Part shown: positions 14,435 through 27,939 of the stretch, in pieces
How positions within the stretch are numbered: the stretch's first letter is position 1
How the letters are laid out: each line of letters starts with the position of its first letter
Assembly (NCBI RefSeq): GCF_900609055.1
Contig: NZ_UXAW01000066.1
Span: 1-51,389 of the forward strand
DNA: 51,389 nucleotides
From: Pseudogemmobacter humi
Lineage (GTDB): Bacteria; Pseudomonadota; Alphaproteobacteria; Rhodobacterales; Rhodobacteraceae
Direction of reading: 5' to 3'
Position numbers and translations under genes: made by a program
Notes under the pieces: generated by a model
Told to the model about the DNA's origin: nothing
Seen by the model: the letters and a program-made list of their open reading frames with translations, nothing else
The model's database searches: none

Positions 14435-14461
14435 GGAATGGTGCGGCTGATGCACCATTCC
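14435..14461. promoter_or_regulatory. LysR-type operator, copy A, upstream of the ABC importer operon
   Basis: A perfect inverted repeat: GGAATGGTGC (14435-14444), 7-nt spacer GGCTGAT, then GCACCATTCC (14452-14461). It contains TGC-N7-GCA, a T-N11-A LysR box. The same element recurs at 19730-19756 and 26964-26990. It lies about 87 bp before the binding-protein ATG. The remaining part of 14070-14548 shows no gene. Confidence 0.7.
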
Positions 14462-14548
14462 GCCTGCCGGAAACTGCTTGTTTACGACCTGTCGCAGCCT
14501 AGGCTCCGGGCAGAAGAAACGATACGAATTCCAACAGGAGAAGTTACA

Positions 14549-15577
14549 ATGCAAAGCATGACGCGTCGTTCTCTTTTGTCGGTCGGCGCCGCTGCGGGCG
14601 TGGGCGCGGCACTGGGAATCCGTCCGGCCCTGGCCGGGGACTCTGCGCTTTACGAGGCGGCGAAGGCCGAGGGCGAACTGAACCTTTACTGGGGATCCTA
14701 CGAGCAGAAGACGATCGACGAGCTGATCGCGGCCTTTACCGCCCGATATCCCGGGATCGGTGTCAATCTGTTGCGCCAGGCCTCGCAGACCGTCTACACC
14801 CGGCTGCGGCTGGAGATGGACAATGACGCGGTGCAATGCGACTCGCTCGGCACCACCAATGTGCTGCATTACAACGAACTGAAATCGCTCGATGCGCTGC
14901 GCCCCTACAAGCCGGCCGCGGCGGAGATGATCCCCGAGGCCTTCCGCACGCTCGACCCGGACGGGCTGTTCCATGTCGGCGCGATCAGCCTGATCTGCAT
15001 CAACCGCTCGGCTTCGGTCGAGGGGCCGAAATCCTGGGCCGAGATGGTCGGCGGCGGTTTCGCCGGCGAGATTTCCTGCGGCAGCCCCGCCCATTCCGGC
15101 GATGTGGCGCATTGGACGGTGGCGATGCTGGCGAAATTCGGCGAGGATTTCCTGCGCGATTTCGCGGCGCAAAAGCCGAAGATCGGCCAGTCCAGCGTCG
15201 ATTCCGTCACCGACATCCTGGCAGGCGAGCGCACCGTCGGCGCCAGCGCACCCTACAGCTATACGCTGACCCAGAAAGCCGCCGGCAATCCGATCGACGT
15301 GACGATGCCGTCGGACGATGCGATCCTGAACCTCGGGATCACGGGAATTCCCGCGAAGGCGCCGCATCCCAACGCGGGCCAGCTTTTCAACGAATTCCTC
15401 TATTCGCCGGAAGCCTCGCAGGTTCTGGTCGCCAACAACTGGCCCAGCCTGCGCAGCGATGTGCCCTGGGCCGGCGGGCTGAGCCTCGATCAGATCGGCT
15501 GGTATCGCAATCCCGCCGAGGGCCTGACCGAGGCCATGGCGGAGGCGATCGAAAAGTGGAAAGACATCGTGGCCTGA
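14549..15577 (+). CDS. ABC importer periplasmic substrate-binding protein (Fe3+/AfuA-type family)
   Basis: A 342-aa protein. It starts with a Tat-like leader (MTRRSLLSVGAAAGVGAALG, cleavage about residue 29 after ALA), then LYEAAKAEGELNLYWGSYEQ, the typical opening of the AfuA/PhnS/SBP_bac_6 type. Further parts include LGTTNVLHYNELKSLDALRPY and SAPYSYTLTQKAAG. Family members carry ferric ions or small organic and phosphonate solutes; the regulon context here (CoA-ligase, thiolase) argues for an organic acid rather than iron (inference). ATG 14549 follows AGGAGAAG at good spacing. It is first in an operon with permease, ATPase and MFS genes, behind LysR-type operator copy A. Confidence 0.88.
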   Translation: MQSMTRRSLLSVGAAAGVGAALGIRPALAGDSALYEAAKAEGELNLYWGSYEQKTIDELIAAFTARYPGIGVNLLRQASQTVYTRLRLEMDNDAVQCDSLGTTNVLHYNELKSLDALRPYKPAAAEMIPEAFRTLDPDGLFHVGAISLICINRSASVEGPKSWAEMVGGGFAGEISCGSPAHSGDVAHWTVAMLAKFGEDFLRDFAAQKPKIGQSSVDSVTDILAGERTVGASAPYSYTLTQKAAGNPIDVTMPSDDAILNLGITGIPAKAPHPNAGQLFNEFLYSPEASQVLVANNWPSLRSDVPWAGGLSLDQIGWYRNPAEGLTEAMAEAIEKWKDIVA

Positions 15578-15589
15578 CCACGGCGCTAT

Positions 15590-15648
15590 GGCCGCCGGGC
15601 CCATACCGGCGGCCGCGAAATCCGGCGACCCGGGCGGCAGCGCCCGGG
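15590..15648 (+). repeat. Two strong hairpins between binding-protein and permease genes
   Basis: Hairpin 1: GGCCGCCGG (15590-15598), 7-nt loop, CCGGCGGCC (15606-15614). Hairpin 2: CCCGGGCG (15629-15636), loop GCAG, CGCCCGGG (15641-15648). Neither is followed by a clear T tract. Such structures after a binding-protein gene commonly stabilise the upstream message or lower transcription into the permease genes. Confidence 0.6.
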
Positions 15649-15689
15649 CTTCGCCCCTTTGCTGCCCGACCGTTCCGCGAGACCCCGAG

Positions 15690-17432
15690 ATGACCTCACA
15701 GCCCCGCCCGGCCCTGTCCGGCATCATCGGCCACAACCTGCCGCGCTGGCTGGTGCTGACGCTGGTGACGCTGGCGCTTTTGCTTCTGGTTGCCCATCCG
15801 CTTGGCTGGATTCTGTGGAACAGCTTCCACGATGACAGCACCAAAGAGCTGACGCTCGGCAACTACCAGCGGATGTTCACCCGTCCGTCGCTCTGGATTC
15901 CCATCGTCAACTCTCTGCTGCTGGCCTTTTCGGTCGCCTTGTTCTCGACGCTGATCGGAGTGCCTCTGGCCTGGCTGGTCGCGCGCACCGACATGCCCGG
16001 GCGGGGGTTCATCCGGGCGATGACGATGACCGCCTTCGTGACCCCCTCGTTCATCGGGGCGCTCGGCTGGATCCTTCTGGCGGCGCCGAGGGCGGGCTGG
16101 CTGAACGTGGGCTGGCGCAACCTCACCGGGGCAGAGGGGCAGCTTCTCGACATCTACACCATGACGGGGACGATCTTCGTCTGCGCCATCTATACCGTGC
16201 CCTATACGTTCGCTCTGGTCGCCAGCGCCTTCGACGAGATGGCGGTCGAGCTGGAGGACGCCGCAACCACGCTTGGCGCGGGAAAATGGCGCACGATGCT
16301 TTCGATCACCGTGCCGCTGGCAAGCCCGGCCTTCCTTGTCGGCTTCATCCTGTCCTTCATCCAGGGCATGACGCTGTTCGGCGTGCCGGCCTTTCTGCTG
16401 ACCCCTTCGGGCACACGGGTCGTCACCACCCAGCTTGCGGAATTCTATCAGCTTTTCCCGCCCGAGATCTTTCTGGCCGCGGCCTATTGCATGCCGCTGC
16501 TGATCGTGACGGCGGGGCTGTTCTGGATCCGCCGCCGTATCCTCGGGCGCCGCCAGTTCACCACCATCGGCGGCAAGACCCGCCGCACGCGGCGGATCGC
16601 ACTGGGCGCGCGGGCACGCTGGCTGGGCTTCGCCTTTGCCATGATCGTGCCGGTCACCGCGGTCATCCTGCCCTTCGCCGCGCTGCTGCTGGTGTCCCTG
16701 TCGAAAGCCTGGGGGATGGGGCCGGTGTCGGGGAATTTCACCCTCGACTGGTATCGCTGGGCGCTGCTGGAAAACGGCGAGACGCAACGCGCCATCGTCA
16801 ATTCGCTGCTCTATGCCGGGATAGCCGCCTCGGTCTGCATGCTGCTTGGCGTGGTTGTCGCCTATATCTCCGAGCGCCGGCTGTTCAGCGGCGCCGCCAT
16901 CCTCGGCGCGCTGGCGACCACGCCGATCATCATCCCGGGGATCGTGCTCTCGGTCGGCTTCTTCTCGGCCTATACCCGCCCGCCCTTCGGTTTCTATGGC
17001 TCGGCCGTGCTGGTGATCGCAGCCTTCGTCGCGACCTTCCTGCCGATCGCCTATTCCCAGGGCACCACCACGATCAAAGGCATCAGCCCCGATCTGGAAC
17101 GCGCCGCCCGCAGCGTGGGCGCCGGAGAGATCCGCACCTTCCTGTCGATCACCGCGCCCCTGATGCGGACGGGCCTCGTCTCGGGCTGGCTTCTGGTCTT
17201 CATCCCGATCATGCGGGAACTGTCGGTCGCGATTTTCCTCGTCTCGCCGAAAACGAATGTGATGACCACGCTGATCTACAATTACAAGGACGGCGGCAAT
17301 TACGAGGCCGTGGCAGCGACCAGTGTGGTGCTGCTGGCCGGAACCCTGGTGATCGTGCTTCTGGCCCGGCTTCTGGTCGGTCAGGGCAGCCGCCGCACCC
17401 GCAAAACCCCGACCACGGACTCTGCCGCATGA
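15690..17432 (+). CDS. ABC importer permease, two fused transmembrane domains (FbpB/AfuB-type)
   Basis: A 580-aa membrane protein with about 12 transmembrane segments and two binding-protein-dependent transport domains in tandem. Each has the cytoplasmic EAA loop that docks the ATPase: AVELEDAATTLGAGKWRTM (about residue 190) and DLERAARSVGAGEIRTF (about 468). The fused layout is usual for ferric and AfuB-type importers. ATG 15690 is chosen since the preceding residues read as non-protein and a GAGA sequence lies before it. The stop overlaps the ATPase ATG by 4 bp. It is part of the operon under LysR-type operator copy A. Confidence 0.9.
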   Translation: MTSQPRPALSGIIGHNLPRWLVLTLVTLALLLLVAHPLGWILWNSFHDDSTKELTLGNYQRMFTRPSLWIPIVNSLLLAFSVALFSTLIGVPLAWLVARTDMPGRGFIRAMTMTAFVTPSFIGALGWILLAAPRAGWLNVGWRNLTGAEGQLLDIYTMTGTIFVCAIYTVPYTFALVASAFDEMAVELEDAATTLGAGKWRTMLSITVPLASPAFLVGFILSFIQGMTLFGVPAFLLTPSGTRVVTTQLAEFYQLFPPEIFLAAAYCMPLLIVTAGLFWIRRRILGRRQFTTIGGKTRRTRRIALGARARWLGFAFAMIVPVTAVILPFAALLLVSLSKAWGMGPVSGNFTLDWYRWALLENGETQRAIVNSLLYAGIAASVCMLLGVVVAYISERRLFSGAAILGALATTPIIIPGIVLSVGFFSAYTRPPFGFYGSAVLVIAAFVATFLPIAYSQGTTTIKGISPDLERAARSVGAGEIRTFLSITAPLMRTGLVSGWLLVFIPIMRELSVAIFLVSPKTNVMTTLIYNYKDGGNYEAVAATSVVLLAGTLVIVLLARLLVGQGSRRTRKTPTTDSAA

Positions 17433-18502
17433 GTGATATCCGCATCAAAGGGCTGAACAAGACGTTCGGCACCTATCAGGCCCTGCGCAATCTGAACCTG
17501 GACCTTGCCGACGGGCATCTGCTGGCGCTGCTCGGCCCTTCGGGCTGCGGCAAATCCACCACCTTGCAGATGCTGGCCGGGTTCGAGGCGCCGAGCAGCG
17601 GCGAGATCTGGGCGGGGGACCGGCTGATCTCAAGCCCCACCTCGGTGGTGCCGCCCGAGAAGCGCGGCATCTCGCTGGTGTTCCAGAACTATGCGGTCTG
17701 GCCGCATATGACGGTGGCGGAGAACATCGCCTTCGGTCTGAAGATCCGGCGGCTGTCGCGCAGCGAGGTGGCCGAGGGAACCAGGGCGGCGCTGGATGCG
17801 GTGCGCCTTGGCCAGCTTGCCGACCGCTACCCGTCCGAGCTTTCGGGCGGTCAGCAGCAGCGCGTGGCGCTGGCGCGGGCGCTAGCGGTCCGGCCCGGCA
17901 TCCTGCTGCTGGATGAGCCGCTGTCGAACCTGGACGCCGCCCTGCGCGACGAGATGCGCTTCGAGATCCGTCGGGTGCATGACGAGCTGGGGATCACCAC
18001 CGTCTATGTGACCCATGACCAGTCCGAGGCCCTGGTGACGGCGGACCGGATCGCGGTGATGAAACTGGGCGAGCTTCAGCAGCTCGGGGCGCCCGAAGAG
18101 GTGTTCGACCGGCCGGCAAATGAATTCGTCGCCTCTTTCATCGGCAACAACAACACCGTTCCGGGCATAAGCGCCGGCAAGGGTGCGCTCAGGTTCGGCG
18201 GCGAGACCGTCACCGCACTTGATCGCAGCGGGGCGGGTGAGGGGGGCGGGGCCGTTCTGATCATCCGCCCCGGCAAGATCCGGCTGTATGAGGAGGGAAC
18301 CGCGCCCGCCGGTCTGGCGAACGCCCTGCCGGCGACGGTGCTGCGCTCGGCCTATCTGGGCGAGAGCCGCGATATCCTCGCCGAACTGGCGACCGGGGCC
18401 ACGATGCGGGTGCTGGTGCCGCCGGAGCAGCGCCCGGCGCCGGGCGACAGGGTGGTCCTCGAACTGCCGGCCGCGCATTGTCAGATCCTGCCGGGAGGCT
18501 GA
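17429..18502 (+). CDS. ABC importer ATP-binding protein (FbpC/PotA-like)
   Basis: A 357-aa ATPase: Walker A GPSGCGKSTT (about residues 35-44), Q-loop LVFQNYAVWPHM, signature LSGGQQQRVALARAL (about 136), Walker B ILLLDEPLSNLD, and the switch His in VYVTHDQSEA. A C-terminal TOBE-like domain (about 250-355, VLIIRPGKIRLYEEG) is typical of MalK/PotA/FbpC-type ATPases. It energises import by the fused permease. The ATG overlaps the permease stop (ATGA). The gene's 3' end overlaps the MFS gene by 25 bp. Confidence 0.92.
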   Translation: MSDIRIKGLNKTFGTYQALRNLNLDLADGHLLALLGPSGCGKSTTLQMLAGFEAPSSGEIWAGDRLISSPTSVVPPEKRGISLVFQNYAVWPHMTVAENIAFGLKIRRLSRSEVAEGTRAALDAVRLGQLADRYPSELSGGQQQRVALARALAVRPGILLLDEPLSNLDAALRDEMRFEIRRVHDELGITTVYVTHDQSEALVTADRIAVMKLGELQQLGAPEEVFDRPANEFVASFIGNNNTVPGISAGKGALRFGGETVTALDRSGAGEGGGAVLIIRPGKIRLYEEGTAPAGLANALPATVLRSAYLGESRDILAELATGATMRVLVPPEQRPAPGDRVVLELPAAHCQILPGG

Positions 18503-19680
18503 TCCGGCCGCAGGACGAGGCGGCGGCCACCGGGCGCCAGTCCTGGCGGCTCGGCCAGTTCTACGCCGTCAGCATCCTGGCGCGCAGTCTGCTGATCGCG
18601 GTCATTCCCGCCATCGCGCTGTTGCGGCTCGGGGACGCGGGCCTCGTCAGCGCGGTCTATTTTGCGTCGAGCTGCCTGACGTTCACGATCAGCCTGGCGC
18701 TGCCGCGGGTGCTGCACCGGCTCGGGCTGCGCGGGATCCTTGCCGCGGGCACCCTAAGCGGGGTGCTCTGCGGTCTTTCCTTCCTGCTGCCGGGCCTTGC
18801 CGGTCTGGTTCCCGGGCTGACGCTGCATGTGCTGATGGTGCTTTGCTTCGAGAATGCCAGCAATCTCGCGGCTTTGCGGCTGATCGCCCGCCGCGATCAG
18901 CCCGCGTTCGAGGCCCGCCGCGTCATGCTGGCCGCCCCCGCCTATATGCTGGGCCCGGTGATCGGCACCGCCTTGCAGGAGGCGGGACTGGTGGGGCTGG
19001 TCTTTGCGGCGGCCGCGCTTTGCGCCTGTCTTGCGCCGCTTCTGGTTTTCATGGCCGGGCGCGGGGCCGCCGCCGTCCGCCCCGCCCCGGCGGCGCCTGC
19101 CGCAAGCGGTTTCGCGCTGCGCGGCTTCCTGTCTGCGCCGCGTTTGCGGGCGGCATGGCTGCTGGCCGTCGGCCGGGCGATGTGGTGGCAGATGCTTTTC
19201 GTCTACACCCCCCTGATGGCGCTGTCCCTTGGCGAGGGGCTGGCGCAGGCCGGGATCGTCGTCTCGCTGGCTTCGGCGCTTTTGCTGAGCGCGCCGCTCT
19301 GGGCGCGGCTGACCCGGCGGATGGGTCTCAGGCGGTTCATGATCGCCGCCTATATCCTTTGCGGGCTCTTCGCCTGCCTTGCCGGCGTGCTGGCGCAGTA
19401 TTCCTTCCCGCTTTTCGCCGCCGCGATCCTGCTCTCGGCGCTTGGCGTAAGCGCGATCGACAGCGTGGCCAATACGCCCTTCCTGCGGGCCGTGCGTCCG
19501 CGAGATGCGGCGCGGATGGTTCCGATCTACAACACGTTCCGCGAAGTGGCGCAGATCGTGCCGGCGGGGGTCTATGCGCTTCTCCTGCTCTTCGCCGAGA
19601 TCCGGCACATCTTCATCCTGACCGGGCTGAGCCTTGCCGCCTTCGCCTGGTTCTGCCGGTTCCTGCCGCGCCGGGGCTGA
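18478..19680 (+). CDS. MFS transporter
   Basis: A 400-aa membrane protein with 11-12 hydrophobic segments, two halves separated by a cytoplasmic loop near residues 195-215, and MFS-like basic loops such as WARLTRRMGLRRFMIAA. I cannot name the substrate. The start is taken as TTG 18478 because the frame needs an N-terminus before GRQSWRLGQFYAVS and no ATG or GTG fits. This gives a 25-bp overlap with the ATPase gene, so translation is probably coupled and the start uncertain by some residues. As the last gene of the importer operon it may export a product or import a related substrate. Confidence 0.8.
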   Translation: MSDPAGRLIRPQDEAAATGRQSWRLGQFYAVSILARSLLIAVIPAIALLRLGDAGLVSAVYFASSCLTFTISLALPRVLHRLGLRGILAAGTLSGVLCGLSFLLPGLAGLVPGLTLHVLMVLCFENASNLAALRLIARRDQPAFEARRVMLAAPAYMLGPVIGTALQEAGLVGLVFAAAALCACLAPLLVFMAGRGAAAVRPAPAAPAASGFALRGFLSAPRLRAAWLLAVGRAMWWQMLFVYTPLMALSLGEGLAQAGIVVSLASALLLSAPLWARLTRRMGLRRFMIAAYILCGLFACLAGVLAQYSFPLFAAAILLSALGVSAIDSVANTPFLRAVRPRDAARMVPIYNTFREVAQIVPAGVYALLLLFAEIRHIFILTGLSLAAFAWFCRFLPRRG

Positions 19681-19729
19681 TCCTGCCTTCGCCACGGCGG
19701 CCCGGGAGGGCGTCTCATCCCGTTTTGCC

Positions 19730-19756
19730 GGAATGGTGCCTTTCCCGCACCGATGC
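19730..19756. promoter_or_regulatory. LysR-type operator, copy B, upstream of the CoA-transferase operon
   Basis: GGAATGGTGC (19730-19739), 7-nt spacer CTTTCCC, then GCACCGATGC (19747-19756). The left arm is identical to copy A and the right arm keeps GCACC and the TGC-N7-GCA core. It lies 190 bp before the CoA-transferase ATG (19946). The rest of 19681-19945 shows no gene. Confidence 0.6.
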
Positions 19757-19945
19757 CGCAGCGAATAACTGATTGTTTGCAAGGTGGTTATGTGGAGCAA
19801 TGACGCGAGGAAAACGGCGGAGGATCCGCCGGGAAATCCACGAGACAACCCTTTCGCACCCGCCGGTTGCAAGCCCCTATCCCGCGCGCCCTCTCCGGCG
19901 CGTGAAAAGGGCCACGTCGCGGGGGCGTTATCGCCAGAGGCCGAA

Positions 19946-21151
<1,206 letters not shown>

Positions 21152-21177
21152 GAATACCGCAGGCAGAGGAACCGAAA

Positions 21178-22692
21178 TTGACCAATCTTGTCGAGGCTTT
21201 CGATCTGGCGGGCCGGGCCGGGCGCCCGGTGCTGATCCCTTTCGCGGGCGGTGTCGGGCAGACCGCCGTCACCTGCGGCGATCTGCGGGCGCTGGCCGCC
21301 CGCTTCGCCGGAGTGCTGGACGAACTGGGCCTGGTGCCCGGCGACCGGGTGGTGGTCCGGGTCGAGAAAACCGTGGCCAATCTGGCGCTTTACCTGGCCA
21401 CCCTGCAAAGGGGCGCGGTTTTCGTGCCGCTCAACACCGCCTATCGGCCGCAGGAGGTGGAGTATTTCCTGCGCGACACGTCGGCCCGGCTGGTGGTCTG
21501 CGACCCTGCCGATGCAGAGGTCATCCGCCCGGTGGCGGATGAGACCGGCGCCCGGGTGCTGACGCTCGATGCCTTTGGCGAAGGCAGCCTGACCAGGGCC
21601 GCGGGCAATCCGCAGCCCGCGATCGTGGCGCGGGACGATGACGATATCGCGGCCATTCTCTACACTTCGGGCACCACCGGAAAGCCGAAAGGCGCGATGC
21701 TGAGCCATGGCAACCTGCGCTCGAACGCCATGGCGCTGCGCGATCTGTGGCAGGTGACGGGCGATGACGTGATGCTGCACGCGCTGCCGGTCTTTCATGC
21801 GCACGGGCTTTTCGTCGGCTGCAATGTCATGCTTCTGGCCGGGGCGCAGATGCTGTTCCTGCCGAAGTTCGATCTGTCCCTTGTGCTGGACCTGCTGCCG
21901 CGCGCCACGGTGATGATGGGCATCCCGACCTTCTACACAAGGCTGCTGGCCGATCCCCGGCTCGACCGTGAAAAGGTGCGCGGGATGCGGCTTTTCACCT
22001 GCGGCTCGGCGCCGCTGCTGGCCGAGACCCATCGCGAATGGTCGGCGCGGACCGGAACCGCGATCCTCGAACGCTACGGCATGACCGAGACCGGGATGAA
22101 CACCTCGAATCCCTATGAGGGCGAGCGCCGCCCGGGCAGCGTCGGCCCGGCCCTGCCGGGCGTATCGGTGCGCGTCACCCGTCCGGGCAGCGCGGAGGTG
22201 CTGCCCCCGGGCGAGATCGGCATGATAGAGGTGAAGGGGCCGAATGTCTTCCGCGGCTATTGGGGGCTTCCCGAAAAGACCGCGGCCGAATTCCATCCCG
22301 GCGGCTGGTTCATCACCGGCGATCTCGGCTTCATCCAGGAGGACGGTTATGTGCAGATCGTCGGGCGCGGCAAGGATCTGGTGATCACCGGCGGCTTCAA
22401 CGTCTATCCCAAAGAGGTCGAGACCGAGATCGACGCGCTGGAAGGCGTGGCGGAAAGCGCGGTGATCGGCCTGCCCCATGCCGATTTCGGCGAGGCGGTG
22501 ACGGCCGTGGTCGTGGCGCAGCCCGGCGCCGCGATCAGCGAGGCCGCGATCCAGGCGGCGCTGCGCGAGCGGCTTGCCGCGTTCAAACTGCCGAAGAAGG
22601 TGATCTTCCTGCCGGAACTGCCCCGCAACACCATGGGCAAGGTGCAGAAGGCCCAGCTTCGCGAAATCTATCGCGGGCTTTACTCCGCCTGA
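21178..22692 (+). CDS. matB: Malonyl-CoA/methylmalonyl-CoA synthetase-like AMP-forming ligase (MatB family)
   Basis: A 504-aa adenylate-forming enzyme very close to alphaproteobacterial MatB. P-loop YTSGTTGKPKGAMLSHGN (about residue 161), HALPVFHAHGLFVG, ERYGMTETGMNTSNPYEGER, hinge GRGKDLVITGGFNVYPKE, and C-terminal catalytic Lys in RNTMGKVQKAQLRE. MatB ligates malonate or methylmalonate to CoA using ATP. The start is a TTG at 21178 (AGAGGAA upstream), giving MTNLVEAFDLAG. No malonyl-CoA decarboxylase (matA) or malonate carrier is nearby, so a different short dicarboxylate or a methylmalonate-type substrate is possible. It is co-transcribed with the CoA-transferase. Confidence 0.9.
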   Translation: MTNLVEAFDLAGRAGRPVLIPFAGGVGQTAVTCGDLRALAARFAGVLDELGLVPGDRVVVRVEKTVANLALYLATLQRGAVFVPLNTAYRPQEVEYFLRDTSARLVVCDPADAEVIRPVADETGARVLTLDAFGEGSLTRAAGNPQPAIVARDDDDIAAILYTSGTTGKPKGAMLSHGNLRSNAMALRDLWQVTGDDVMLHALPVFHAHGLFVGCNVMLLAGAQMLFLPKFDLSLVLDLLPRATVMMGIPTFYTRLLADPRLDREKVRGMRLFTCGSAPLLAETHREWSARTGTAILERYGMTETGMNTSNPYEGERRPGSVGPALPGVSVRVTRPGSAEVLPPGEIGMIEVKGPNVFRGYWGLPEKTAAEFHPGGWFITGDLGFIQEDGYVQIVGRGKDLVITGGFNVYPKEVETEIDALEGVAESAVIGLPHADFGEAVTAVVVAQPGAAISEAAIQAALRERLAAFKLPKKVIFLPELPRNTMGKVQKAQLREIYRGLYSA

Positions 22693-22707
22693 GACCGGAC
22701 GGAGCGG

Positions 22708-22735
22708 AAAGGCCGCGGTGCGCGCCGCGGCCTTT
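22708..22735. terminator. Bidirectional terminator between matB and the thioesterase gene
   Basis: AAAGGCCGCGG (22708-22718), 6-nt loop, then CCGCGGCCTTT (22725-22735): an 11-bp perfect stem with A/T ends between convergent genes. The terminal T run is short (TTT). Confidence 0.75.
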
Positions 22736-22749
22736 CGCAGGTGCTGCGC

Positions 22750-23214
22750 TCACATCAGCGCGGCCAGCCTTTCGCGCGTCTCCGGCGGGAAAACCGCGGC
22801 GCGGCGGGTTTCGAGACTGGCGCAAAGCGAGGTCTGGGCCATCGTCGCCGCCAGATAGCCCTGCCGGGCATGGTGCATTTCCATCTGCGCGAACAGCCTT
22901 TTGTCGTCGTGATGCGTCAGCGAGAGGGTGACGCGCAAAGGATCGCCCTCGCGCAGCTCGCGGCGGAAGTCGATGCCCGCGTGGACGGTGAACAGCCCGA
23001 GCCGGGTCTGCCGCGTCCAGTCGGCGCCGATGCCGCAATCGCCGAAGATCTCATGTCCCAGAAGATCGAAGACCATCGCATAGCAGGCCATGTTCATATG
23101 GCCGTACAGATCGATCCAGCCGGGCGCGACGCGGCAGATGCGGTAATTCCCGCGCCAGTGCTGCGGGCGCGGGTCGGGGCCCCCGGATGGGAGGCCCAGG
23201 GTGATTTCCTGCAT
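22750..23214 (-). CDS. 4HBT-type acyl-CoA thioesterase
   Basis: A 154-aa hot-dog protein. The helix segment GWIDLYGHMNMACYAMVFDL (about residues 32-51), with Asp35, His39, Met40 and Asn41, is the active-site motif of 4-hydroxybenzoyl-CoA-type thioesterases. A following strand reads HAGIDFRRELREGDPLRV. It is predicted to hydrolyse an acyl-CoA in the pathway and recycle CoA. It is the last gene of the six-gene minus-strand operon that starts with the thiolase, 19 bp after the crotonase gene. Confidence 0.85.
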   Translation of the reverse strand: MQEITLGLPSGGPDPRPQHWRGNYRICRVAPGWIDLYGHMNMACYAMVFDLLGHEIFGDCGIGADWTRQTRLGLFTVHAGIDFRRELREGDPLRVTLSLTHHDDKRLFAQMEMHHARQGYLAATMAQTSLCASLETRRAAVFPPETRERLAALM

Positions 23215-23233
23215 ATTCTTCTCCGCTGCGGCC

Positions 23234-24082
23234 TCAGCTTCCTTTGAAAACCGGCTTTTGCCGGGTGGTGAAGGCCGTGATGGCGGTATGGTAGTCTTCG
23301 GATCCGTAACAGGCCATCAGCACGTCCTCGTCTTCCACCGCTGCGATCGCTGTGTCGCGCATCCGCCGCAGGATCTCTTTGGTGCCCCAGAGCGTCAGCG
23401 GCGCCAGCGCGGCCATTTCTTCGGCGATCATACGGGCGCGGGGCAGCAGCGACGCCTCGTCGTCCGTCACCTCGCGCAGCGCCCCGGCTTCGGCCAGCGC
23501 GCCGGCGGGCAGCAGGCGGGCCGAAAACACCATCTCTTTCGTGCGCGCGGGTCCGATCAGCGCCGTCAGCCGGGCGAAGTTCCGGGCCGAGAGGCAATTG
23601 CCCACTGTGCGCGCGATGGGAAAGCCGAAGCGCAGCGAGGGCGTGGCGATCCGCACGTCGCAGGCGGCGGCGATCAGGGCGCCCATCCCGATGCAGGGCC
23701 CGGCCATGGCGGCGATGGTGGGCACCCGCAGCGCTTCGAGCCGGGTGGTCACCTCTTCGGCGCTGGCCTCGGTCGCCAGCACGTCGCGGGGCGTCGCCAC
23801 GGCGCCCAGGTCCGCCATATCGCCCCCGGCCATGAACGAGGGCCGGGCGCCGGGCATCCCCGTCAGCACCAGCCCGCGCAGATCGCGGTCGGTTTCCAGC
23901 TCGCGGAAAACCGCGATCATCGCGGTTTCCATCGCATGGGTCATCGCATTGAGCGCGGCCGGCCGGTTGAAGGCCAGCCATTCCACGCGGCCGGTCCGCA
24001 GGCGCAGGATCTCGCCGCCGGCCAGTTTTTCGCCCGCCGCCAGCATGGCTTCGGTCATCGGGGGGGTATTCTCTTCGGTCAT
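23234..24082 (-). CDS. Crotonase-family (enoyl-CoA hydratase/isomerase-like) protein lacking both catalytic glutamates
   Basis: A 282-aa crotonase-fold protein. The CoA-binding and oxyanion region is present (PSFMAGGDMADL and GPCIGMGALIAAACDVR). The two Glu residues that do hydration in classical crotonase are missing: the position in GGGCEL reads GMGALI, and FGQPEI reads FGFPIA. It may therefore be an isomerase, a decarboxylase of the methylmalonyl-CoA type or a thioester hydrolase rather than a hydratase (inference). ATG 24082 is used, 14 bp after the SDR stop, with GGAAG upstream. The MaoC protein in the same operon could supply hydratase activity. Confidence 0.85.
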   Translation of the reverse strand: MTEENTPPMTEAMLAAGEKLAGGEILRLRTGRVEWLAFNRPAALNAMTHAMETAMIAVFRELETDRDLRGLVLTGMPGARPSFMAGGDMADLGAVATPRDVLATEASAEEVTTRLEALRVPTIAAMAGPCIGMGALIAAACDVRIATPSLRFGFPIARTVGNCLSARNFARLTALIGPARTKEMVFSARLLPAGALAEAGALREVTDDEASLLPRARMIAEEMAALAPLTLWGTKEILRRMRDTAIAAVEDEDVLMACYGSEDYHTAITAFTTRQKPVFKGS

Positions 24083-24096
24083 TCCGGTCTTCCGTC

Positions 24097-24840
24097 TCAG
24101 AAATCGCCGGTGGTGGCGCCGCCATCCGCGATCAGGGTCTGGCCGGTCACATAGGACGCGTCGTCCGATGCAAGGAACGCCACCACCGCGGCGATCTCGG
24201 CCGGGTCGCCGAAACGGCCGGCAAGGATCTGGCCGGTCCATTTCGCGCGGATTTCCTCGGGCACCGCCATCACCATCGGGGTTGCGATCACCCCCGGCGC
24301 CACCGCATTGACGCGGATGCCGCGCTTTGCCCCTTCGATGGCGGCGGTGCGGGTCAGGCCGGTGATCCCGGCTTTCGCCGAGGAATAATTCGCCTGGCCG
24401 AAGGTGCCGAAGATCGCGGTCGAGGCGATGTTGATGATCGCGCCGCCCCGGTCCTGCTGAGCGAAAAGCCGGAAAGCGGTCTGGCAGCCAAGCCAGGTGC
24501 CGCGCAGGTTGACGTTGATCACCGCCTCCCAGTCCTCGTCCTGCATCCTGAGAAGCGAGCGGTCGCGGGTGATGCCGGCGATATTCGCAAGGATCGAGAT
24601 GTCGCGGAAATCCGGGGGCAGGTTTTCGGTCAGCGCTTCCCAGCTTGCGCGTTCGGCCACATCCAGCGCCATCGCGATGGCCGGGCCGGACAGGCCGGCG
24701 GCCACCTGCCGCGCGGTTTCAGGATCGCGGTCGGCCACGATCACCCGCCCGCCCTCATCGGCGAGGCGGGCGGCCACCGCGCGCCCGATGCCGCCGGCGC
24801 CGCCGGTGACGAGGGCGGTTTTCCCGGAAAGTCCGCGCAT
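24097..24840 (-). CDS. Short-chain dehydrogenase/reductase (FabG-like 3-hydroxyacyl-CoA dehydrogenase candidate)
   Basis: A 247-aa classical SDR. The cofactor motif TGGAGGIG is near residues 12-19, Asp37 in VIVADRD suggests NAD(H), NAG-type motif ANIAG follows, and the catalytic Ser, Tyr and Lys lie in INIASTA and ANYSSAKAG. The C-terminal TGQTLIADGG is typical. In this operon it should oxidise a 3-hydroxyacyl-CoA made by the MaoC hydratase, giving the 3-ketoacyl-CoA for the thiolase (inference). It starts 3 bp after the MaoC stop, so it is tightly coupled. Confidence 0.9.
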   Translation of the reverse strand: MRGLSGKTALVTGGAGGIGRAVAARLADEGGRVIVADRDPETARQVAAGLSGPAIAMALDVAERASWEALTENLPPDFRDISILANIAGITRDRSLLRMQDEDWEAVINVNLRGTWLGCQTAFRLFAQQDRGGAIINIASTAIFGTFGQANYSSAKAGITGLTRTAAIEGAKRGIRVNAVAPGVIATPMVMAVPEEIRAKWTGQILAGRFGDPAEIAAVVAFLASDDASYVTGQTLIADGGATTGDF

Positions 24841-24843
24841 GGC

Positions 24844-25290
24844 TCAGCCCTCCGCCCGGCGTTCGACCAGAAAGACATCCTCGCCCTTCTGCGGCACGCT
24901 GCCGTCCTGCTTCACCAGTTCGATCCCGACCCGCACCACGCCGCGGTCGGGTTTCGAGCCCGAGGGACGTTTTTCGAGGATCGTCGCGCGGTATTGCACG
25001 GTGTCGCCGATCAGAAGCGGGGCGGCAAAGCTGCGCGAGGTTTGCAGAAAGGCCATGATCGCCCAGTCGTCGATCCCCGAGCGCAGCCCGGTCGAAAGCG
25101 AGTGGCCCAGCATTCCATGGGCGATGCGGCGCCCGAAACCGTTTTCCCGGGCGGCGGTCTCGTCCATATGCAGCGGGTTGAAATCGCCGGTCAGCCCCGC
25201 GAAGGTCACGATATGGCTTTCGGTGATGGTGACGCGCGACGAGGAATATTCCGCGCCCTCGGTGATATCGTCAAAAAAGATCTGGTTCAT
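24844..25290 (-). CDS. MaoC-family enoyl-CoA hydratase (hot-dog fold)
   Basis: A 148-aa single hot-dog domain protein. The hydratase-2 motif is intact: TGDFNPLHMDETAARENGFG followed by RRIAHGML (about residues 34-61), with the Asp/His dyad used to hydrate enoyl-CoA. It is shorter than two-domain eukaryotic forms, normal for bacterial R-hydratases and itaconyl/mesaconyl-CoA hydratase relatives. The neighbouring CoA-transferase, SDR and thiolase suggest a beta-oxidation-like step on a short acyl-CoA. It lies between the DUF35 and SDR genes with short gaps. Confidence 0.88.
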   Translation of the reverse strand: MNQIFFDDITEGAEYSSSRVTITESHIVTFAGLTGDFNPLHMDETAARENGFGRRIAHGMLGHSLSTGLRSGIDDWAIMAFLQTSRSFAAPLLIGDTVQYRATILEKRPSGSKPDRGVVRVGIELVKQDGSVPQKGEDVFLVERRAEG

Positions 25291-25331
25291 TGGGGTTCCT
25301 TTCGGGCAGCGGGCCCATTGCGGATGCCGGA

Positions 25332-25709
25332 TCAGACGGGACGGAACACCGGCAAAGCGGTCTCTTCGTCCAGGGGCTCGAAATCGACCCGCAGCTTCAG
25401 GCCGATGCGCATATCGGCCTCGTCGATTCCGCGCAGCGAGGACAGCATGATCACGCCTTCATCAAGCCGGACCATCGCGCAGTTGTAGGGCGGCCGTCTG
25501 GTGTTGCCGCGGTGGATCACGGTGAAAGAGAACAGCTCGCCGGTGCCTTTCGCCTCGACCCATTCGGGAGTGGCAGAGGGATCATGGATGGAATGGCCGC
25601 GCGGATACCATTGGTAACGGCCGGTCGAGGGGCAGCGCTGAATCAGCAGCCGCCCCTGTTTCAGCCCCTCCCAGAACGGGGCGCTGTCGTTGTCGGGAAC
25701 GGGTTTCAT
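25332..25709 (-). CDS. DUF35 OB-fold protein, thiolase partner, with reduced zinc ribbon
   Basis: A 125-aa protein: an N-terminal helix (NDSAPFWEGLKQGRLLIQRC), a remnant zinc-ribbon stretch CPSTGRYQWYPRGH and a C-terminal OB fold (GTGELFSFTVIHRG, then YNCAMVRLDEGVIML). Family members form complexes with SCP2-type thiolases or retro-aldolases, as in steroid side-chain degradation. Only one of the usual four zinc cysteines is present. The gene begins 12 bp after the thiolase stop, supporting a complex with it. Confidence 0.85.
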   Translation of the reverse strand: MKPVPDNDSAPFWEGLKQGRLLIQRCPSTGRYQWYPRGHSIHDPSATPEWVEAKGTGELFSFTVIHRGNTRRPPYNCAMVRLDEGVIMLSSLRGIDEADMRIGLKLRVDFEPLDEETALPVFRPV

Positions 25710-25721
25710 CGCGGAGTCTCC

Positions 25722-26888
25722 TCAGACCGTCAGGATCGCGGTGGACGAGGCGCAGAACGTGCCGCCCAGCCCGTGGATCAGCGCCGTCTGCGCGCCTTCG
25801 ACCTGCACGCCCGGCCCGTCGCCGCGCAACTGGCGGGCGCCCTCGATCAGCGCCAGAAGGCCGCGTTTGCCCGGATGGTTCGACGACATGCCGCCGCCAT
25901 CCGTATTGCAGGGCAGGGCGCCGCCGATCCCGAGATTGCCGTCCGAGACGAAGGCCCCACCCTCGCCGCGCGGGCAGAACCCCAGGTCCTCCAGCGCAAG
26001 AAGCGGCGTGATGGTGAAGGCGTCGTAAAGCTGCGCGACATCGATATCCGCGGGGCCGAGCCCCGCCATGGCGAAGGCGCGCTGCCCCGAGATCACCGCG
26101 GGCGTCGAGAGATCCTCGGGGATCTGGCTGATCTGGGTGCGCCGCACGGCGGCGCCGAAGCCGGAAAGCAGCACCGGCCTGCGGCGCAGATCCCGGGCGC
26201 GTTCGGCGCTGGTCATCACGATGGCGCCGCCGCCGTCGGTGACGAGGCAGCAGTCCAGCCGCCGCAGCGGACTGGCGATCAGCGTCGAGCCGAGCACATC
26301 TTCGACGCTCAGCGGGCTGCGCATCTTCGCCTGCGGGTTTTCGGCGGCATGGCGGCGGAAGGTGACGGCGATTTCGGCCAGCTGCGCGGGAGTGGTGCCG
26401 TAATCCGCCATATGGCGCTGCGCCATCAGCGCATAGGCCGAAATCAGCGTCGGATCATAGGGAAGCTCGTACTGGCCCGGCCCGGCCGGAAGGACGAAAG
26501 GGTCGAAAGAGGGCGTGGTCAGCGGCCACCAGCGCGGGCAGGCGGCATAGGCGATCACCACGACTTCGGCCATGCCGGTGGCGATGGCCGCGGCGGCATG
26601 GCCGGCATGGACCAGGTAGGAACATCCCCCCACATCGGTGCCGTTGAACCAGGTGGGGGTGATCCCCGCGTAATCCGCGAATTCGGTGACGCTTTCGACC
26701 GCGCCGCCCTCGGCCCAGTCCCCCGAGGCGATGCAAAGCCCGTCGACATCCTTCAGGTGGAGCCCCGCGTCATCCAGCGCCGCAAGGATGCTGTCCATCA
26801 TGATGCGGAACGGGTGAATCCCCGGCGCATCGCGCAACGGCGATTCATGCAGGCCGACGATCGCCGCCTTGTTTCGGATGCCCGGCAT
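25722..26888 (-). CDS. SCP-x/SCP2-type thiolase (acetyl-CoA acyltransferase-like)
   Basis: A 388-aa thiolase-fold protein of the SCP2/Ltp2 type. Candidate nucleophile Cys in DVGGCSYLVHAGHAA (about residue 84). The family motif YDAFTITPLLALEDLGFCPR is near 290, followed by NTDGGGMSSNHPG with the catalytic His and GLGGTFCASSTAIL with a C-terminal Cys. It would cleave a 3-ketoacyl-CoA or, with DUF35, act as a retro-aldolase. ATG 26888 is chosen with AGAGGG upstream; the longer open frame is rejected because it would run into the regulator's promoter region. It is first in the operon, divergent from the LysR gene, next to operator copy C. Confidence 0.88.
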   Translation of the reverse strand: MPGIRNKAAIVGLHESPLRDAPGIHPFRIMMDSILAALDDAGLHLKDVDGLCIASGDWAEGGAVESVTEFADYAGITPTWFNGTDVGGCSYLVHAGHAAAAIATGMAEVVVIAYAACPRWWPLTTPSFDPFVLPAGPGQYELPYDPTLISAYALMAQRHMADYGTTPAQLAEIAVTFRRHAAENPQAKMRSPLSVEDVLGSTLIASPLRRLDCCLVTDGGGAIVMTSAERARDLRRRPVLLSGFGAAVRRTQISQIPEDLSTPAVISGQRAFAMAGLGPADIDVAQLYDAFTITPLLALEDLGFCPRGEGGAFVSDGNLGIGGALPCNTDGGGMSSNHPGKRGLLALIEGARQLRGDGPGVQVEGAQTALIHGLGGTFCASSTAILTV

Positions 26889-26963
26889 CTGGCCCTCTTT
26901 GGTTCTTGCGCTTGCCGCAGGGTCGGCAGGAAGGGCTCTTTCCACAAGCAGTTTGACGGCGGC

Positions 26964-26990
26964 AAAAAGTTGCATAAAATGCACCAATCC
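26964..26990. promoter_or_regulatory. LysR-type operator, copy C, between thiolase operon and regulator gene
   Basis: AAAAAGTTGC (26964-26973), 7-nt spacer ATAAAAT, then GCACCAATCC (26981-26990). The right arm matches copy A at 9 of 10 positions and TGC-N7-GCA (T-N11-A) is kept; the left arm is weaker. It sits in the 157-bp divergent intergenic region, where a LysR regulator normally controls itself and its target. Confidence 0.65.
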
Positions 26991-27045: not shown

Positions 27046-27939
27046 ATGAACGAGCCGCGCAACATTCCGCCGCTGATCTCGCTCCGGGCCTTTGAGACCT
27101 ATTCGCGCCATGGCCTCGTGCGCGAGGCGGCCGAAGAGCTTTCGATCTCGCATACGGTGGTGTCGCGCCATATCCAGAATCTGGAATATTTTCTCAAGGT
27201 AAAGCTGGTGCGCAAAAGCGGCCGCAACCTTGTGCTGACCCGCGAGGGCGAGCGTTACGCGGAACAGATCCGCCGGGCGTTCGGCATCATCGCATCGGCC
27301 TCGGGCGGGCTCAGACGGGGGACCGAAAGCGCCCTGCATATCTCCTGCATGCCCGGGCTGGCGACGCGGCGGATCCTGGGGATGCTGTCCGAGATCGAAA
27401 GGACGATCCAGGTCGGCAACCTCACCTTGCAGCCGCAGCTTCTGGGCGCAGAGATGCTGAAAGGCGGCGCCGATGTCGAGCTGACCTACAGCGAGACCGT
27501 GCCGGCGATCCCGGGGCTGAGCGCCGAGATCTTTGCAAGCCCGCGGATCATCCCGGTCGCCAGCCCCGAACTGCTGGCGTCGGCGGGCGGGGTGAGGACG
27601 CTGTCCGATCTGACCCGGCTGCCGCTGATCCATGAGAAGACCTCCAGACAGTGGGAGGACTGGCTGACCAAGGCCGGCATGGTCGAGATCCCCGAACTGC
27701 GCGGCGTCAAGCTCTGGCAGGGAAACCTTTCGATCGAAGGGGCCCGGCTCGGCCAGGGCGTCGCCCTCGTCAGCACGCTGATCGCCAGACCCTCGCTGGA
27801 GCAAGGCGAGATCGTCGAGGTCCTGCCCAGCAATGTGCGGCTCGGGGATTATTACATGCTGGCGTCGGACCAGACCTGGAAACGGGCCGAAGTGCAGAAG
27901 CTGCGGGACTGGCTGCGCGCGGTCTTTGCCGGCGAGTGA
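27046..27939 (+). CDS. LysR-family transcriptional regulator (GcvA-like)
   Basis: A 297-aa LTTR. The N-terminal winged helix-turn-helix (about residues 8-66) contains LISLRAFETYSRHGLVREAA and LSISHTVVSRHIQNLE; the opening PPLISLRAFE is typical of the GcvA-like branch. The C-terminal effector domain follows from about residue 90. ATG 27046 has AAGGAA upstream; the long frame before it would overlap the operator and lacks coding character. It is divergent from the thiolase operon and is the likely binder of operator copies A, B and C (inference from position and T-N11-A geometry). The effector is probably the substrate or a CoA ester of it. Confidence 0.92.
   Translation: MNEPRNIPPLISLRAFETYSRHGLVREAAEELSISHTVVSRHIQNLEYFLKVKLVRKSGRNLVLTREGERYAEQIRRAFGIIASASGGLRRGTESALHISCMPGLATRRILGMLSEIERTIQVGNLTLQPQLLGAEMLKGGADVELTYSETVPAIPGLSAEIFASPRIIPVASPELLASAGGVRTLSDLTRLPLIHEKTSRQWEDWLTKAGMVEIPELRGVKLWQGNLSIEGARLGQGVALVSTLIARPSLEQGEIVEVLPSNVRLGDYYMLASDQTWKRAEVQKLRDWLRAVFAGE

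What the first reader, a model, noticed from the sequence alone, without database searches (positions are those of the whole stretch)
14435..26990. Three copies of one T-N11-A palindrome define a predicted LysR regulon
GGAATGGTGC-N7-GCACCATTCC is perfect at 14435-14461 and recurs with the same 7-nt spacer at 19730-19756 and, weaker, at 26964-26990. Copies sit before the importer operon, before the CoA-transferase/matB operon, and in the divergent thiolase/LysR region. TGC-N7-GCA is a LysR box. This links 12 structural genes and one regulator (27046-27939) in a coherent, apparently undescribed regulon. What I see is the repeats and their placement; that the local LysR protein binds them is inference.
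Basis: partly seen in the sequence, partly recalled or inferred. Interest (0 to 1): 0.78.

Follow-up and report, generated by a model that had tools for sequence, protein, structure and literature searches.

The report
Conserved LysR-type regulon of acyl-CoA genes
Three copies of one control sequence sit before three neighbouring gene groups that probably take up and break down an unknown organic acid, and the same sequence, spacing and neighbouring regulator gene recur in distant bacteria, so this is very probably a real, seemingly undescribed regulon of a well-known kind.

Summary
GGAATGGTGC-N7-GCACCATTCC is perfect at 14435-14461 and has weaker copies at 19730-19756 and 26964-26990. In the host's 4.47 Mb genome the composite pattern has only three matches with at most one mismatch, and they are these three. 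The cluster with its LysR gene recurs in Roseovarius, Azospirillum, Bosea, Ancylobacter and Pseudomonas (27 of 80 fetched loci). All 28 clusters, window included, carry a site before the thiolase-like gene, 24 of 24 before a separate CoA-transferase gene, 3 of 3 before a separate importer operon. A matrix trained without the window's family ranks the three window sites first (42.2, 39.7, 29.6; next 12.3). The palindrome would lie about 64 nt before a predicted transcription start, the usual place of a LysR recognition site. It is a new member of a known kind: the regulator resembles GcvA but its predicted DNA motif differs.

The parts
14435..14461 (+). Site 1: perfect palindrome GGAATGGTGC-N7-GCACCATTCC, predicted LysR recognition site of the importer promoter (centre 14448)
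14474..14481 (+). CTGCTTGT element at +26..+33 from the palindrome centre; overlaps the predicted -35 hexamer TTGTTT (14478-14483)
14500..14505 (+). Predicted -10 hexamer TAGGCT, 16 nt after the -35 hexamer
   Evidence: inference
14549..15577 (+). ABC importer substrate-binding protein (SBP)
   Evidence: Pfam SBP families
15588..17432 (+). ABC importer permease (two BPD_transp_1 stretches)
17429..18502 (+). ABC importer ATPase (ABC_tran + TOBE_2); start codon chosen by overlap with the permease gene
18478..19680 (+). MFS-type membrane protein; also in Roseovarius (L027), not found in L026 or in the other lineages
19730..19756 (+). Site 2: palindrome before the CoA-transferase operon (centre 19743)
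19769..19776 (+). CTGATTGT element of site 2, same spacing
19943..21151 (+). CoA-transferase family III; start codon probably 19943 or 19916
   Evidence: start inferred
21178..22692 (+). Malonyl-CoA synthetase (MatB-like)
   Evidence: NCBIfam PRK07514 above cut-off
22750..23214 (-). 4HBT-type thioesterase
23234..24022 (-). Enoyl-CoA hydratase (start codon approximate)
24097..24840 (-). SDR dehydrogenase, FabG-like
24844..25290 (-). MaoC-like hydratase
25332..25709 (-). zf-ChsH2 + OB-fold (DUF35-type) protein
25722..26888 (-). Thiolase-like protein, first gene of the minus-strand operon
26964..26990 (-). Site 3: palindrome between the thiolase-like and LysR genes (centre 26977)
26944..26951 (-). 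CTGCTTGT element of site 3, same spacing, towards the thiolase-like gene
27046..27939 (+). LysR-type regulator, GcvA-like subfamily

Best explanation
The three sequences are LysR-type activator promoters. Each holds one palindromic recognition site centred about 64 nt upstream of the predicted transcription start, and a CTG(C/A)TTGT element 26-33 nt downstream of the palindrome centre that overlaps the -35 hexamer. The divergently encoded LysR protein (27046-27939) most likely binds all three, activates the importer, CoA-transferase/MatB and thiolase-like operons when its inducer (the substrate or a pathway intermediate) is present, and represses its own gene through site 3. Shown: the sites, their spacing, their specificity in the genome, and their conservation together with the regulator gene. 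Inferred: binding, direction of control, autoregulation and inducer.
For: The composite pattern has three matches within 1 mismatch in 4.47 Mb, all in this cluster. In 23 relatives' genomes, 33 of 34 matches within 1 mismatch lie at the cluster, and each of the 23 has at least one there. All 28 clusters carry a site before the thiolase-like gene, 24 of 24 before a separate CoA-transferase gene and 3 of 3 before the separate importer operon of the window's family. TGC-N7-GCA and TTGT at +30 are exact in 55 of 55 sites. With sites chosen by the palindrome alone, a top-scoring palindrome has TTGT at +30 in 54 of 55 promoters; top scores were tied in 17. Leave-one-clade-out matrices put the expected sites first in 22 of 22 loci. 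TANNNT, a -10-like hexamer, stands at +52 in 3 of 3 importer and 21 of 28 thiolase-like promoters. A LysR orthologue is in 28 of 28 clusters and its predicted recognition helix is the same in 20 of 20 aligned. T-N11-A near -65 is the usual LysR site (passages of PMC8407307, and PMC4834489).
Against: No binding, transcript or start-site data exist here. No second palindrome was found on average between +14 and +50, so a palindromic activation site is not shown. The element is exactly CTG(C/A)TTGT in 40 of 55 sites; all 14 Azospirillum-type CoA-transferase promoters and one thiolase-like promoter (L036) differ before TTGT. TANNNT at +52 is absent in 24 of 24 CoA-transferase promoters and in 7 of 28 thiolase-like ones, the window's among them. 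The sites were first picked with up to 3 mismatches to the composite, which favours agreement. The composite also occurs without the cluster: 33 matches within 1 mismatch, three of them exact, in 30 of 387 other family genomes; and at up to 2 mismatches the 23 relatives' genomes show no excess over the reversed control (144 against 160, my sums). Where MatB or the thioesterase gene stands apart in other lineages, only weak sites or none precede it. The three outgroup regulators share SHTVISRH of the helix segment, so that segment is not unique to this group.
Confidence: 0.88

Rival explanations
1. The sites are real promoter operators, but another regulator, not the neighbouring LysR, binds them.
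For: Binding was not tested. The genome has 48 first-look candidates for LysR homologues, 23 of them scored. Flanks of the clusters were not searched systematically for other regulators; one AraC-type neighbour was seen in L052.
Against: LysR is the only regulator among the window's cluster genes and is in 28 of 28 clusters. Regulator and site stay together across two classes while the operons are rearranged. The core fits the LysR T-N11-A box at the usual distance. Three 3.9-kb loci around more distant LysR homologues (38-42% identity) show no such site, though their targets may lie elsewhere.
Confidence: 0.07
2. Chance or composition: GC-rich palindromes that happen to sit in intergenic regions.
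For: The palindrome core alone is as common as its control in the genome.
Against: The composite within 1 mismatch is confined to the cluster in the genome, recurs at fixed spacing in 28 clusters, and is predicted by matrices built without the window's family. In 72 background loci not fetched by the pattern (909,369 bases) the highest score is 23.1, below all three window sites.
Confidence: 0.01
3. The palindromes act as RNA hairpins or terminators rather than protein-binding sites.
For: Site 1 could form a hairpin.
Against: No run of T follows. The sites lie upstream of the predicted -35 region and keep a fixed distance to it; site 3 has imperfect arms while the core is kept. No fold calculation was run.
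Confidence: 0.02

Closest known systems
GcvA (site data from Escherichia coli; solved chain 8y6u_H, species not shown by the call)
   Same: Best solved relative, matched over residues 5-296. Divergent arrangement and a first palindrome near -65 (section 6 of PMC5002191).
   Different: GcvA palindromes are ATTAG-N5-CTAAT, with a second one at -43. Here the core is GGTGC-N7-GCACC and no second palindrome was found on average. The NCBIfam GcvA model scores 184.1 against a cut-off of 288.
ThnR tetralin regulon (LysR-type, at least four promoters including two close divergent ones)
   Same: One LysR-type regulator acting at several promoters, each with its own primary site; close divergent promoters (passages of PMC4834489), as in the Azospirillum clusters.
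   Different: ThnR needs the co-activator ThnY and one of its primary sites is centred at -75. The pathway differs. Here the downstream element is conserved, whereas PMC4834489 describes the secondary contacts of LysR proteins as falling on non-conserved sequences.
Sal-Shy and Ltp2-ChsH2 side-chain retro-aldolases
   Same: Thiolase-like protein, zinc-ribbon/OB-fold partner and MaoC hydratase encoded together. The thiolase-like protein matches chain 6ok1_A, a 'Lipid-transfer protein' that I recall as Ltp2, and shares its LYD-FT motif.
   Different: The best match is thiolase 4u4e_A, and the protein just passes NCBIfam PRK06158, named acetyl-CoA acetyltransferase (422.1 against 421). MaoC and OB-fold parts are separate genes. 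No steroid link was sought or shown and activity is untested. Comparison with Sal-Shy rests on the abstract of PMC11321319.

Membership tests
LysR-type transcriptional regulator | N-terminal HTH_1 and C-terminal LysR_substrate domain | tested here: met
   Pfam scores 54.1 and 66 against cut-offs 26.6 and 28
LysR-type transcriptional regulator | T-N11-A palindrome near -65 of the target promoter | tested here: met
   TGC-N7-GCA in 55 of 55 sites; about -64 if the start is 7 nt after TAGGCT at 14500-14505. The start is predicted, not mapped
LysR-type transcriptional regulator | Activation-binding site at the -35 region | tested here: inconclusive
   TTGT at +30 in 55 of 55 sites and CTG(C/A)TTGT in 40 of 55, but no second palindrome on average
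LysR-type transcriptional regulator | Specific DNA binding and inducer-dependent activation | not testable with these tools
   Needs binding assay and transcript data
GcvA | Passes the NCBIfam GcvA model | tested here: not met
   184.1 bits against cut-off 288
GcvA | ATTAG-N5-CTAAT sites, two per promoter | tested here: not met
   Core is GGTGC-N7-GCACC, one palindrome per promoter on average
Ltp2/Sal-type retro-aldolase | Thiolase-family protein encoded with an OB-fold/DUF35 partner | tested here: met
   Sequence families only
Ltp2/Sal-type retro-aldolase | Retro-aldol activity | not testable with these tools
   Needs enzyme assay
Malonyl-CoA synthetase | Passes the NCBIfam PRK07514 cut-off | tested here: met
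   764.8 bits against 558

The most novel reading that the evidence does not exclude
The roughly 60-bp promoter (recognition palindrome plus rigidly placed -35 element) behaves as a cassette that is gained when the core cluster is split into more transcription units: one strong copy in Pseudomonas, two in Azospirillum, Bosea and Ancylobacter, three in the window's family. It would govern an uncharacterised pathway for an imported organic acid with a retro-aldol cleavage by a thiolase-like/OB-fold pair.
Probability: 0.35. Interest if true: 0.55.

Novelty: new member of a known kind. Interest (0 to 1): 0.45.

Why it matters
It gives a precise regulon prediction for a cluster that carries only generic product names even in Azospirillum brasilense Sp7, where both predicted sites are present. 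Because targets, sites and spacing are fixed, one deletion and one binding assay can test it, and the regulon gives a handle on the unknown substrate. The conserved element at the -35 position is also a good case for studying how a LysR-type protein and RNA polymerase share a promoter.

Tried and rejected
Palindrome core alone as a genome-wide predictor: rejected, 438 matches against 428 for the control. The other exact core match in the genome (C101:100850) was judged by eye to lie in a coding stretch.

Second palindrome as in GcvA: the only positions between -6 and +51 with a mean of 4 or more complementary pairs of 10 were the palindrome itself (6.29) and +4 (4.06), which overlaps it. One locus, L047, does have a second palindrome of its own.

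More distant LysR homologues (L106-L108, 38-42% identity) as members: no matching site in their 3.9-kb loci, best palindrome scores 3.6, 10.4 and 8.9.

Extra sites before MatB or the thioesterase in other lineages: weak candidates (held-out matrix scores 13.8 to 19.7; sequences), not counted in any total.

The background scan looked bad (11 scores of 28 or more) until one search showed that all 11 lie in loci fetched by the composite pattern itself; the one checked is COX15-CtaA coding sequence.

Substrate: ten flanking proteins from L027, L040, L043, L047 and L052 showed no extra gene common to them; solved relatives of the binding protein are weak and mixed. Literature: nine searches were answered; their listings showed no description of this cluster or motif. 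One search searched GGTGCA and TGCACC with LysR; its eight papers were judged by title and start of abstract. Papers: PMC8407307, PMC4834489, PMC5343134, passages; PMC5002191, passages and section 6; PMC11321319, abstract and outline. In PMC5343134 the passages name HmgQ and MetR as LysR regulons, and thiolase and CoA-transferase do not occur in its main text. Subscription journals and RegPrecise itself were not searched.

Rows dropped: of 80 loci, 53 lack the cluster and were left out of cluster counts. The matrix used 22 of 28 clusters; six near-duplicate Azospirillum loci (L029, L033, L034, L035, L037, L039) were left out. One search used 23 of the 27 relatives with the cluster. One search aligned 20 of 28 cluster regulators plus three outgroups. 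The thiolase-like alignment used 15 of 28. One search used 16 of 28.
Full report
Observation. Site 1 (14435-14461) is perfect; site 2 (19730-19756) differs at three right-arm positions; site 3 (26964-26990) keeps 15 of 20 arm positions. The pattern with up to three mismatches matches twice in the window and never in 100 shuffles. The core alone is not specific: TGGTGC-N7-GCACCA with up to two mismatches has 438 matches in the 4.47 Mb genome and the reversed control has 428.

A second element. Reading from each palindrome centre towards the gene, CTGCTTGT (sites 1 and 3) or CTGATTGT (site 2) lies at +26 to +33. The composite GGTGC-N7-GCACC-N17-CTGNTTGT has 0, 0 and 1 mismatches at the three sites. 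In the whole genome these are the only matches within one mismatch; the next four have two; with up to three the counts per strand (28 and 23) approach the reversed control (24 and 16). In the window three matches within two mismatches compare with a shuffle mean of 0.01.

Genes. Plus strand: substrate-binding protein, two-part permease, ATPase and an MFS-type protein; then CoA-transferase family III and a malonyl-CoA synthetase. Minus strand: thiolase-like protein, zinc-ribbon/OB-fold protein, MaoC hydratase, SDR, enoyl-CoA hydratase and 4HBT thioesterase. The LysR gene is divergent from the thiolase-like gene.

Relatives. A search with the CoA-transferase gave 80 named loci. Of these, 27 carry the cluster (one Rhodobacteraceae MAG, Roseovarius confluentis, 14 that are Azospirillum or labelled Roseomonas, seven Bosea/Ancylobacter, four Pseudomonas), and in 53 no LysR, thiolase-like, OB-fold, binding-protein or permease gene matched at E 1e-10. 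The cluster is sporadic near home: 1 of 12 sampled congeners has the LysR orthologue (G010, 91% identity), and of 394 family genomes sampled only the host matched at E 1e-60.

Placement across relatives. Gene order differs. In Pseudomonas the genes from the thiolase-like gene through the importer to the CoA-transferase run in one direction; in Azospirillum, Bosea and Ancylobacter the CoA-transferase is separate; in the window's family the importer is separate too. The number of strong sites follows: one, two and three. A site lies before the thiolase-like gene in 28 of 28 clusters, before a separate CoA-transferase gene in 24 of 24 and before a separate importer in 3 of 3. This does not extend cleanly to MatB and the thioesterase, which in some lineages stand apart with weak sites or none. 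All 55 sites keep TGC-N7-GCA and TTGT at +30 exactly; the full CTG(C/A)TTGT is kept in 40 of 55. Since these sites had been picked with up to three mismatches to the composite, I repeated the choice with the palindrome alone, from 260 nt upstream to 40 nt inside each gene: 54 of 55 promoters have a top-scoring palindrome with TTGT at +30, though top scores were tied in 17. The miss is the L039 thiolase-like promoter, whose site centre is 256 nt upstream, so that its palindrome runs beyond the stretch scanned.

Held-out test. A 50-column matrix built from Azospirillum, Bosea/Ancylobacter and Pseudomonas sites alone gave 42.2, 39.7 and 29.6 for the three window sites and 12.3 for the next place in 51 kb. 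In 22 of 22 loci, each with its own clade held out, the expected sites came first. Twenty single-base shuffles of the window reached at most 15.0. In 72 background loci not fetched by the pattern the highest score was 23.1, in an Anaerovirgula contig. Higher background scores, up to 37.2, came only from loci that the composite pattern itself had fetched; the one checked is COX15-CtaA coding sequence.

Other genomes. In 23 relatives' genomes, 34 matches within one mismatch were found; 33 lie at the cluster and one (G792:C8) elsewhere. With up to two mismatches the totals (144, my sum) do not exceed the reversed control (160). In 387 other family genomes there are 33 matches within one mismatch, three of them exact, in 30 genomes, at most two in any one genome.

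Regulator. The LysR protein has HTH_1 and LysR_substrate domains. Its best NCBIfam match is the GcvA model, at 184.1 bits below the cut-off of 288, and its best solved relative is GcvA (8y6u_H). Outside the window's family the cluster regulators are 62-67% identical to it in the first 90 residues and 43-48% in the rest; SHTV(V/I)SRHIQN is the same in 20 of 20 aligned, and three outgroups share its first part.

Mechanism. LysR-type proteins usually bind a T-N11-A palindrome near -65 and a second region at -35 (passages of PMC8407307, and PMC4834489). At site 1 the hexamers TTGTTT and TAGGCT are 16 nt apart; with a start 7 nt after TAGGCT the palindrome centre is at about -64 (inference). TANNNT stands at +52 in 3 of 3 importer and 21 of 28 thiolase-like promoters, but in 0 of 24 CoA-transferase promoters and not at sites 2 and 3 of the window. 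No second palindrome was found on average. GcvA in contrast has ATTAG-N5-CTAAT palindromes at -65 and -43 (PMC5002191 section 6). The likely scheme is inducer-dependent activation of three operons and repression of the regulator's own gene through site 3, whose centre lies 69 nt before its start codon. In Azospirillum the LysR gene follows the CoA-transferase gene on the same strand, so it may there be activated with its targets.

Pathway. The chemistry is inferred. MatB passes the malonyl-CoA synthetase cut-off. The thiolase-like protein matches 4u4e_A best and the lipid-transfer protein 6ok1_A (recalled as Ltp2) third, and just passes a model named acetyl-CoA acetyltransferase. By eye, the position of the nucleophile cysteine of classical thiolases (recalled) holds glycine, with a conserved cysteine next to it; the Tyr of QLYDAFT and the NHPG motif are the same in 15 of 15 proteins compared. 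With the OB-fold and MaoC genes beside it, a hydration and retro-aldol step is plausible, an ordinary thiolase step not excluded. The substrate is unknown.

Verdict. The finding is right and stronger than its author could know. Nine literature searches showed no description of it; it is of a known kind.

Noticed in passing
window 25722-26888: Thiolase-like protein seems, by eye, to lack the classical nucleophile cysteine and sits beside OB-fold and MaoC genes, suggesting a retro-aldolase; the motifs are conserved in 15 of 15 proteins compared.
   Followed up: partly
window 19784-19943: The longest CoA-transferase ORF starts upstream of the predicted transcription start; the true start is probably 19916 or 19943.
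   Followed up: partly
L047 just downstream of 19020 (minus strand), Ancylobacter sonchi: A second full palindrome GGTGC-N7-GCACC lies between the -35 and -10 positions of the thiolase-like promoter, possibly a second regulator site.
   Followed up: no
L040 9843, L044 296, L045 9745 (minus); L041 12074, L043 19993, L047 20036 (plus); L054 1133 (minus): Weaker composite-like sites before MatB or thioesterase genes in lineages where these stand apart; for L044 the gene itself lies beyond the contig end.
   Followed up: partly
L153-L180, several family genomes: A coding string that mimics the composite motif recurs in several family genomes; the one checked, L166, is COX15-CtaA. A trap for motif scans in this family.
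   Followed up: partly
L181 (Azospirillum brasilense Sp7 plasmid ABSP7_p2): The cluster lies on an 819-kb replicon with only generic product names; both sites are present.
   Followed up: partly
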